Shown: one piece after another, positions 49,429-52,742 of the stretch
Layout: the number at the start of each line of letters is the position of its first letter
How positions within the stretch are numbered: the stretch's first letter is position 1
From: Chloroflexia bacterium
Lineage (GTDB): Bacteria > Chloroflexota > Chloroflexia > DTKN01
Assembly (NCBI GenBank): GCA_016928715.1
Contig: JAFGKG010000101.1
Coordinates: 1-64,000 of the forward strand
Reading direction: 5' to 3'
Length of the DNA: 64,000 nt
Program-made: the position numbers and the translations under genes
The notes under the pieces: model-generated
Told to the model about the DNA's origin: nothing
Seen by the model: the letters and a program-made list of their open reading frames with translations, nothing else
Database searches by the model: none

Positions 49429-49992
49429 TCAATCCCGCTCTGCGACCTTTCGACTGGGCTCAGGACAAGCGCCGGCTTGCTTGCGCTGAGGTCTTGTGTT
49501 CCGAGAGACACCAGGAGCGCTCCGTTGGTTTCCCCACACCCGTAGGGGGGCCTCTTCGGCTATCCACATGGCCAGGCATAGGCCAAAGATCGCGGTCATC
49601 AGGCCGGCCGAGACCAGGCACCAGGTGCAAAAAGCGTGGATCTTGAAGGCCTCCAGATAGGTCAGCACCAGGCTAAAGACAAAGCCGTACTCGGCCAGCC
49701 CCAGCAGGACCATGCGGACGGGCAGCGGGCCGATCCTCTCGCGGGTCATCCAGCCCAGGGTGACGGTCAGGATCAGCACGTAGCCAATCACGCCCTGGAG
49801 GGCGATGGGCGGGCCAAAAGCATAGACGTAGCGGCTTTCGTTGACCGTATCACAGCCGCTGCCCCCGCCCAAACAGGCCGTGTTGCTGGAAAGGCGCAGC
49901 TCGTTCAGCGAGAGATGCACGGCGATGAGCAGCCCCACCAGGGCGAGTAGCCCGATGACCATGCGCAGCTTGAGTGCCCGTTCGGTGGTCAT
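49429..49992 (-). CDS. Vitamin K epoxide reductase (VKOR) family protein
   Basis: Multi-TM; 'NTACLGGGSGCDTVNESRY' and 'FCTWCLVSAGLMTA' Cys motifs. Confidence 0.92.
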   Translation of the reverse strand: MTTERALKLRMVIGLLALVGLLIAVHLSLNELRLSSNTACLGGGSGCDTVNESRYVYAFGPPIALQGVIGYVLILTVTLGWMTRERIGPLPVRMVLLGLAEYGFVFSLVLTYLEAFKIHAFCTWCLVSAGLMTAIFGLCLAMWIAEEAPLRVWGNQRSAPGVSRNTRPQRKQAGACPEPSRKVAERD

Positions 49993-50663
49993 TGGGCCAA
50001 TTCCTCCTCAATGACTCGTTGAAATTCTGCAAAGGGCTGGGCGCCGATCAGCGGGACGTCGTTGATCAGAAAGGTGGGGGTGTACTTGATGCCGCGGTCG
50101 ACGGCGTCCTGCCTCAAGTCCTCCACCTGCTGGCGATAACGTCCCTCGTGCAGGCAGGACTCCAGTGCCGCTCCGTCCAGGCCCAGTTCGGCACTGCTCG
50201 AAAGGGCCAGCATCGCGATGACGTCGTCGGCATAGTACCAGTCATCTAGGTGCTCAAAGAGCCAGGCGTGCATCTCCCAAAAGCTTGCCTGTTCCGCCGC
50301 ACAGTAGACGGCTTCAACGCCCAGGCGGCTGTGCTCGTCATAGAACAACAGCCGGGCGGCATAGCGCACCTGGCCCTGCTCGATGTAGCTTTGTTCCAGT
50401 CGGGGCATCGTCTCAAGGACGTGCAGGCGGCAGTAGCCTCAGCCAAACTGGCTCCACTCGACGATGGTCACCGGGGCGTTCAGGTCGCCCCGGATGGGGT
50501 CCGCCGGCGTCAGCCCGTAGGCGCTGATATCGGGCGGGGCCGTCTCGACGTTGGTGATGATCCAGAGGCTGCCAGCCACGGCGATGACGCCCAGCAGGGC
50601 GTAATACCAGGCCGGCACCTTGAGGCGCCGGCGTTGCCCCCTGGATTTCTTGCTCTTGCTCAT
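49989..50663 (-). CDS. DsbA-like thiol oxidoreductase, probable selenoprotein (in-frame UGA at 50439-50441, motif FGUGYC)
   Basis: Supplied ORFs 50439-50663 and 49989-50408 are same frame, separated by one TGA at the first Cys of CxxC; N-terminal TM; cis-Pro motif YTPTFLIND. Confidence 0.85.
50405..50424 (-). promoter_or_regulatory. Candidate bacterial SECIS hairpin
   Basis: GCA-CGUC-[CUUGA]-GACG-a-UGC; loop ~25-29 nt from the U of UGA. Confidence 0.6.
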
Positions 50664-52345: not shown

Positions 52346-52742
52346 GGTGTCCTCCTGCGGGGCTTTGAATTTGCAGCAATTGCTCTACTTGTTCAATCGT
52401 AACTACTCGGCCCAGCCGCAACATGGCATTTTTTAGTCCGGATTTTCGCCAGGGCATCGTTGCCGTTCTTTACAGCTTGCTTTTCTTTGCGTCCCTTCGA
52501 CTGCGCTCAGGACAGGCCTTTGCGTCTTGGCGGTGAGTAGTAACGTTCAATCAACGTTGGCAAGTTGGGTAAACGAGATTTCAGGGGCTGGCACGCGGTG
52601 TCGTTTTATGTCGGGATGCACGTGCTTGTGATGGGGATAGGAAAAAATGTCACGATCCTATCCTCCGCTGCAGCACCTCCGGTAATCGCTGCGGTTCTAG
52701 ACCGCCTTTATTATAGCACTCCATTGGGCTTTTCGCAAAAGC

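What the first reader, a model, noticed from the sequence alone, without database searches (positions are those of the whole stretch)
49989..50663. Probable selenoprotein: DsbA-like oxidoreductase with Sec replacing the first Cys of CxxC (FG-U-GYC)
The supplied track breaks this locus into 74-aa and 139-aa ORFs. Both are in one frame, separated by a single TGA (50439-50441). Read through, the sequence is ...VTIVEWSQFG[TGA]GYCRLHVLETMPRLEQ...KYTPTFLIND..., so the stop falls exactly where DsbA-family proteins have the first catalytic Cys of CPxC. The cis-Pro motif downstream is intact and the frame stays open to the ATGA overlap with VKOR. A TGC-to-TGA change at the one residue where Sec is functionally expected is unlikely to be random decay. 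DsbA-like selenoproteins have been reported in selenoproteome surveys; whether this lineage or the UGYC form is described is unknown to me. Automated annotation would call it a pseudogene or two fragments.
Basis: partly seen in the sequence, partly recalled or inferred. Interest (0 to 1): 0.92.

Follow-up and report, generated by a model that had tools for sequence, protein, structure and literature searches.

The report
Selenium-containing disulfide-forming enzyme beside VKOR
In a bacterium whose class appears to be Chloroflexia (Chloroflexota), a gene that software would split in two at a "stop" codon most probably makes one secreted disulfide-handling enzyme whose active site carries selenocysteine, next to the gene for its likely membrane partner; such selenoproteins are known, but this partnership and its odd recoding signal look new.

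Summary
Confirmed. On the minus strand, 50663..49989, one frame encodes a 224-residue DsbA-fold protein with a single in-frame UGA (50441-50439, codon 75) at the first active-site position (FG-U-GYC). In 134 aligned homologous domains, 57 have UGA and 77 Cys at this column, and none has a UGA elsewhere. The host MAG carries selA, selB and tRNA-Sec; two formate dehydrogenases and a paralogue also have one in-frame UGA each. selD was not found in this 89%-complete assembly. Relatives have a SECIS hairpin after the UGA (49/57 Sec forms, 1/77 Cys forms). The window has it at the same place, but divergent: its loop, CUUGA, lacks the conserved G. The family is known: Thioredoxin_4 DsbG/DsbA-like UxxC selenoproteins (NCBIfam NF041057, listed in reviews), though the window protein scores below the NF041057 cut-off and is membrane-anchored rather than a lipoprotein. 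The unusual point is the overlapping VKOR gene, the only VKOR found in the genome. Of 16 family members with VKOR directly downstream, 15 are Cys forms; this is the only Sec form. Best reading: a VKOR-recharged selenocysteine DsbA for oxidative protein folding. Sec identity is strongly supported; decoding efficiency and the VKOR partnership are inferred.

The parts
49989..50663 (-). Selenoprotein gene: DsbA-fold (Thioredoxin_4) UxxC thiol-disulfide oxidoreductase, 224 aa with Sec at residue 75
50439..50441 (-). In-frame UGA read as selenocysteine, first position of the U-G-Y-C active site
   Evidence: 57/57 internal UGAs of homologues fall at this column, 77 others have Cys; invariant column in alignment A1
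50430..50432 (-). Resolving Cys78 codon of U-x-x-C
   Evidence: invariant in alignment A1
50405..50424 (-). Candidate SECIS hairpin GCACGUC-CUUGA-GACG.A.UGC; apical loop begins 21 nt after the UGA; loop lacks the conserved G
   Evidence: folds; best hit of the 64-kb window to a covariance model of relatives' SECIS, 13.7 bits, E 0.044
50076..50078 (-). cis-Pro196 codon (Y-T-P-T-F)
   Evidence: invariant in A1
50556..50612 (-). N-terminal membrane anchor/signal helix (residues 18-36); no lipobox Cys
   Evidence: sequence; helix 18-36 in AF2 model
49429..49992 (-). VKOR-family quinone-linked disulfide generator, overlapping the selenoprotein stop by ATGA; Cys40, 47, 122, 125 present
   Evidence: PF07884 E 3e-24; four Cys conserved among DsbA-linked VKORs; only VKOR match in the genome

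Best explanation
The locus is a two-gene operon. The first gene encodes a membrane-anchored extracytoplasmic DsbA-like oxidoreductase whose nucleophilic residue is selenocysteine (U75-G-Y-C78). The UGA is recoded by SelB and tRNA-Sec through a stem-loop starting about 14 nt downstream. The second gene, translationally coupled through ATGA, encodes VKOR. By analogy with mycobacterial DsbA-VKOR, VKOR passes electrons to quinone and re-forms the selenenylsulfide of the Sec enzyme, which then puts disulfides into exported proteins. Shown by computation: the reading frame, UGA at the catalytic column, Sec machinery, DsbA fold, VKOR neighbour with its four cysteines. Inferred: actual Sec insertion, its efficiency with this atypical SECIS, the direction of electron flow and the VKOR partnership.
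For: 57 U / 77 C at one column with zero stray TGA; at least 13 U/C switches on the family tree, at least 4 forced by well-supported branches. Genomes with UGA forms have selA in 34 of 38 cases, and the 4 exceptions are 71-86% complete; 15 named genomes of the class without any selA match have only Cys forms among the listed matches. In the host: selA 549 bits, selB 319 bits, tRNA-Sec 75 bits, two FdhA genes with one TGA each (HCARL-U-HAPTV), and a paralogue with U-PYC; contigs with selA, selB, tRNA-Sec and the paralogue match the window's tetranucleotide signature (r 0.88-0.92, other genomes 0.24-0.55). SECIS stem in register with relatives. AF2 model pLDDT 91, nearest PDB folds BdbD, Wolbachia DsbA1, corynebacterial and mycobacterial DsbA. 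VKOR directly downstream in 16 family members.
Against: The SECIS loop is CUUGA, without the G in its first two positions that the bacterial consensus requires (PMC13188914) and that the other three SECIS elements examined in this genome have (GGUCU, GGUCU, CGUGA). Its model score is 13.7 bits, against 31-38 for the paralogue and relatives and 13.0 for one Cys homologue. selD was not found. The protein has a long tree branch and an unresolved position. No other Sec form in the sample has VKOR downstream. No experimental data.
Confidence: 0.82

Rival explanations
1. A selenoprotein gene in decline: the UGA is an inherited Sec codon but the SECIS has degenerated, so most ribosomes stop at the UGA and little or no full-length enzyme is made.
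For: Loop G replaced by U and a bulge in the stem, unlike the other three SECIS elements examined in the host; long protein branch.
Against: The whole downstream 149 codons stay open with coding-like GC3; A63, C78, P196 and nearly invariant C121, C170, Y93, G97, Q125, G207 all kept; high-confidence fold; overlap with VKOR kept. Reviews state that some bacterial SECIS elements do not fit the consensus (PMC13188914).
Confidence: 0.09
2. A real selenoprotein that works mainly as a reductase or isomerase (DsbG/DsbC-like), its neighbourhood with VKOR being incidental.
For: The reviews call the family DsbG-like; no other Sec form in the sample sits next to VKOR; Sec usually favours reductive chemistry (general knowledge).
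Against: ATGA translational coupling to the genome's only VKOR match; 15 Cys homologues have VKOR in the same place; nearest folds are DsbA/BdbD oxidases; no dimerisation domain seen in the model sequence (inference).
Confidence: 0.15
3. Ordinary stop codon: assembly error (TGC read as TGA) or a nonsense mutation that makes two fragments.
For: Single MAG; reads not available; no genome of the same order is held for comparison.
Against: TGA is the only odd codon and sits exactly where 56 other homologous domains have TGA; host has Sec machinery and other Sec genes; the host paralogue has TGA at the same column.
Confidence: 0.03

Closest known systems
DsbG-like UxxC selenoproteins, NCBIfam NF041057 (Rcas_1661 family thioredoxin-like (seleno)lipoprotein), PF13462
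   Same: Same domain, Sec at the same position, Sec and Cys forms mixed; the member L074 (very probably Chloroflexus aurantiacus) scores 212 bits
   Different: Window protein scores 147.7, below the 190 cut-off; membrane-anchored without lipobox; VKOR partner; different SECIS register and loop from the group that contains L074
DsbA-like selenoproteins (PF01323, UxxC) of prokaryotic selenoproteome surveys
   Same: DsbA fold, UxxC motif
   Different: Best Pfam match is Thioredoxin_4 (6e-28); the DSBA model matches only the C-terminal part (2e-8)
Mycobacterium tuberculosis DsbA (Rv2969c) with VKOR (Rv2968c), PMC3792642
   Same: Membrane-anchored DsbA-fold enzyme encoded next to VKOR; extra cysteine pair (C121/C170 here); fold match 4jr6, 4k6x
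   Different: Cys, not Sec, at the first active-site position
Bacillus subtilis BdbD (partner of BdbC)
   Same: Closest solved relative by sequence (8e-15) and fold (2e-12)
   Different: CPSC Cys enzyme; partner is DsbB-like BdbC, not VKOR (general knowledge)

Membership tests
Selenoproteins (bacterial) | In-frame UGA aligned with Cys or UGA in homologues | tested here: met
   57 U / 77 C, 0 elsewhere
Selenoproteins (bacterial) | Host has selA, selB, selC | tested here: met
Selenoproteins (bacterial) | Host has selD | tested here: inconclusive
   No match in the 88.9%-complete assembly; 120 of 160 genomes of the class have it over cut-off
Selenoproteins (bacterial) | bSECIS: hairpin, loop 16-37 nt after UGA, G in first two loop positions, MFE <= -7.5 | tested here: inconclusive
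   Hairpin and 21-nt spacing met; [quoted passage not shown] hairpin alone -6.2 to -7.0, with upstream 14 nt -11.9
Selenoproteins (bacterial) | Sec in the protein (75Se or mass spectrometry) | not testable with these tools
   No experiment
NF041057 (Rcas_1661 family) | Score at or above the curated cut-off of 190 bits | tested here: not met
   147.7 bits
NF041057 (Rcas_1661 family) | Lipoprotein signal | tested here: not met
   N-terminus has a TM/signal helix and no Cys before the domain; by contrast the paralogue L017 has LLSAC
PF13462 Thioredoxin_4 / DsbA fold | Domain over gathering score, UxxC/CxxC and cis-Pro | tested here: met
   98.5 bits vs 23.2; U75, C78, P196 invariant; DsbA folds top the PDB matches
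DsbA-VKOR pair | DsbA gene adjacent to a VKOR with the four conserved Cys | tested here: met
DsbA-VKOR pair | VKOR re-oxidises the DsbA partner | not testable with these tools
   Needs biochemistry

The most novel reading that the evidence does not exclude
A selenium-dependent oxidative folding pathway: the genome's only detected VKOR recharges a DsbA whose nucleophile is selenocysteine. Only two matches of this family were found in this genome, and both are Sec forms, so extracytoplasmic disulfide formation here may depend on selenium. The UGA is decoded through a SECIS whose loop lacks the conserved G.
Probability: 0.3. Interest if true: 0.65.

Novelty: new variant of a known kind. Interest (0 to 1): 0.45.

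Why it matters
Automated annotation would lose this gene as two fragments, and with it the likely partner of the genome's only detected VKOR. If the pairing is real, it links selenium supply to disulfide formation and gives a natural comparison: Sec and Cys forms of one enzyme family, one of them coupled to VKOR, which would let one ask what Sec gains for an oxidant. The loop without the conserved G is a direct test of how strict SelB recognition is.

Tried and rejected
Close relatives in genome contigs: only two distant Cys homologues; the order has no other held genome, so no dN/dS test. The generic SECIS rule (G in the first two loop positions) found no good hairpin in the window (best -1.2 kcal/mol), which led to the register comparison with relatives. 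Whole-stretch folding energy does not separate U from C forms (P 0.13); the specific 5-bp/5-nt hairpin does. selD sought with the family model and with the protein of a relative: none. Papers: no hit for Rcas_1661; in the query for selenocysteine + VKOR + DsbA + disulfide formation, none of the 15 papers listed held both selenocysteine and VKOR. Considered and rejected: reassigned UGA (Trp or Gly), since the homologues have Cys at the column and the gene's own terminal stop is also TGA.

Full report
Observation. The gene lies on the minus strand, 50663..49989. A 74-codon piece and a 149-codon piece are in one frame, divided by one TGA at 50441-50439. Read through, the 224-residue product has an N-terminal hydrophobic helix (residues 18-36), then a Thioredoxin_4 domain (53-219, E 6e-28) with U75-G-Y-C78 and cis-Pro196. 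Its stop overlaps the start of a VKOR gene (49992..49429) as ATGA. Third-position GC is high on both sides of the TGA (0.92 and 0.77).

Homologues. A search of 160 genomes of the class found the family in 138; a search of 399 genomes of the phylum added more. I fetched about 110 loci. Of 134 aligned domains, 57 have TGA and 77 have Cys at the window's codon-75 column, and no domain has a TGA anywhere else. One further copy (G080) shows two TAA codons in its N-terminal part. A tree with the column masked needs at least 13 U/C changes, of which starred branches force at least 4, the pattern of repeated Sec/Cys exchange expected of a selenoprotein family. In alignment A1 (57 sequences) the invariant columns are A63, U/C75, C78 and P196; C121 and C170 are nearly invariant, probably a second cysteine pair like that of Mycobacterium and Wolbachia DsbA (PMC3792642).

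Sec machinery. The host MAG (3.54 Mb, 226 contigs, 88.9% complete, 5% contamination) has selA (549 bits), selB (319 bits) and tRNA-Sec with anticodon UCA (75 bits). Their contigs match the window's tetranucleotide signature (r 0.90-0.92; pieces of the window itself 0.93-0.95; loci of other genomes 0.24-0.55), so contamination is unlikely. Two formate dehydrogenase genes each have one TGA (HCARL-U-HAPTV), and the only other family match in this genome, on C141, is also a Sec form (EYQ-U-PYC). selD was not found with two kinds of query; in an 89% complete assembly this is inconclusive. Across the class, 34 of 38 genomes with a TGA form among the listed matches have selA over the cut-off, and the other four are 71-86% complete; 15 named genomes without any selA match show only Cys forms among the listed matches.

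SECIS. In Sec forms a 5-bp stem with a 5-nt loop follows the UGA, with the loop starting after 17 nt (HVL group, loop CGUGC/U) or 21 nt (FVR group, loop CGUGA): 49 of 57 Sec forms against 1 of 77 Cys forms. On 17 relatives of the 21-nt group the helix shows covariation (88% paired; 0 of 500 shuffles as high). The window has the same core, CGUC-loop-GACG, in the same register, but with a bulged A and the loop CUUGA. A covariance model built without the window places its best hit in the whole 64 kb exactly there (13.7 bits, E 0.044). That score is modest: the paralogue, not in the model, scores 31.3, and one Cys homologue (L028) scores 13.0. The conserved loop G (PMC1088965) is a U at 50416. The three other SECIS elements examined in this genome have it. 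This is the one feature that does not fit, and it leaves open weak or atypical decoding, or an assembly error.

Structure and partner. AlphaFold2 gives pLDDT 91. The nearest solved structures are BdbD, Wolbachia DsbA1, and corynebacterial and mycobacterial DsbA. VKOR lies directly downstream in 16 of the sampled family members; 15 of them are Cys forms and the window is the only Sec form. The window's VKOR keeps the four cysteines 40, 47, 122 and 125 and is the only VKOR match in its genome. Genetic linkage of DsbA and VKOR is the arrangement of mycobacteria, where the DsbA binds VKOR-derived peptides and has disulfide oxidase activity (PMC3792642). I therefore infer an oxidase role with VKOR as the re-oxidant; this is not shown.

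Known or new. 'DsbG-like protein, NF041057, UxxC' is in the 2026 review's table of prokaryotic selenoproteins (PMC13188914), and PF13462 UxxC in the 2022 review (PMC9312934). A 2006 survey already listed two DsbG-like selenoproteins (PMC1794560). The window protein scores 147.7 against a cut-off of 190 for NF041057 and lacks the lipoprotein signal, so I file it in the wider Thioredoxin_4 UxxC group and not as a strict NF041057 member. New here, as far as these searches show, is a Sec form in an operon with VKOR, and the SECIS loop without the conserved G.

Identity of the host. The class is probably Chloroflexia: G007 has a 5,258,541-base chromosome, which I recall as that of Chloroflexus aurantiacus J-10-fl. 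This is from memory and was not tested.

Noticed in passing
L017:1027-1704 (+) (G000:C141): Second selenoprotein of the same family in the host: lipoprotein (LLSAC lipobox), EYQ-U-PYC active site, canonical SECIS loop CGUGA, no VKOR nearby; a fabZ-like ORF follows.
   Followed up: partly
L145 and L146 (G000:C155): Two formate dehydrogenase alpha genes in the host, each with one in-frame TGA (HCARL-U-HAPTV) and a hairpin with GGUCU loop.
   Followed up: partly
L028:1919-1948 (-): A Cys homologue (DFQCPYCAVFVR) scores 13.0 bits with the SECIS model: possibly the remnant of a lost Sec site, or only conserved coding sequence.
   Followed up: no
L130 (G232), L131/L132 (G402/G343): Sec forms in other classes of the phylum with other motifs (UIYC, UPYC-GQLAP) and hairpins that do not fit the two main SECIS registers.
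   Followed up: no
49429-49530 (-) and 52499-52516: The last ~30 residues of the VKOR ORF run into a sequence (GACTGGGCTCAGGACAAG) that recurs with 2 mismatches at 52499; it may be an intergenic repeat, so the true VKOR C-terminus may differ.
   Followed up: partly
G000 (whole assembly): selD not found, and the selD model gave no candidates at all in this genome, not even other members of its superfamily, unlike nearly all genomes of the class; probably an assembly gap.
   Followed up: partly
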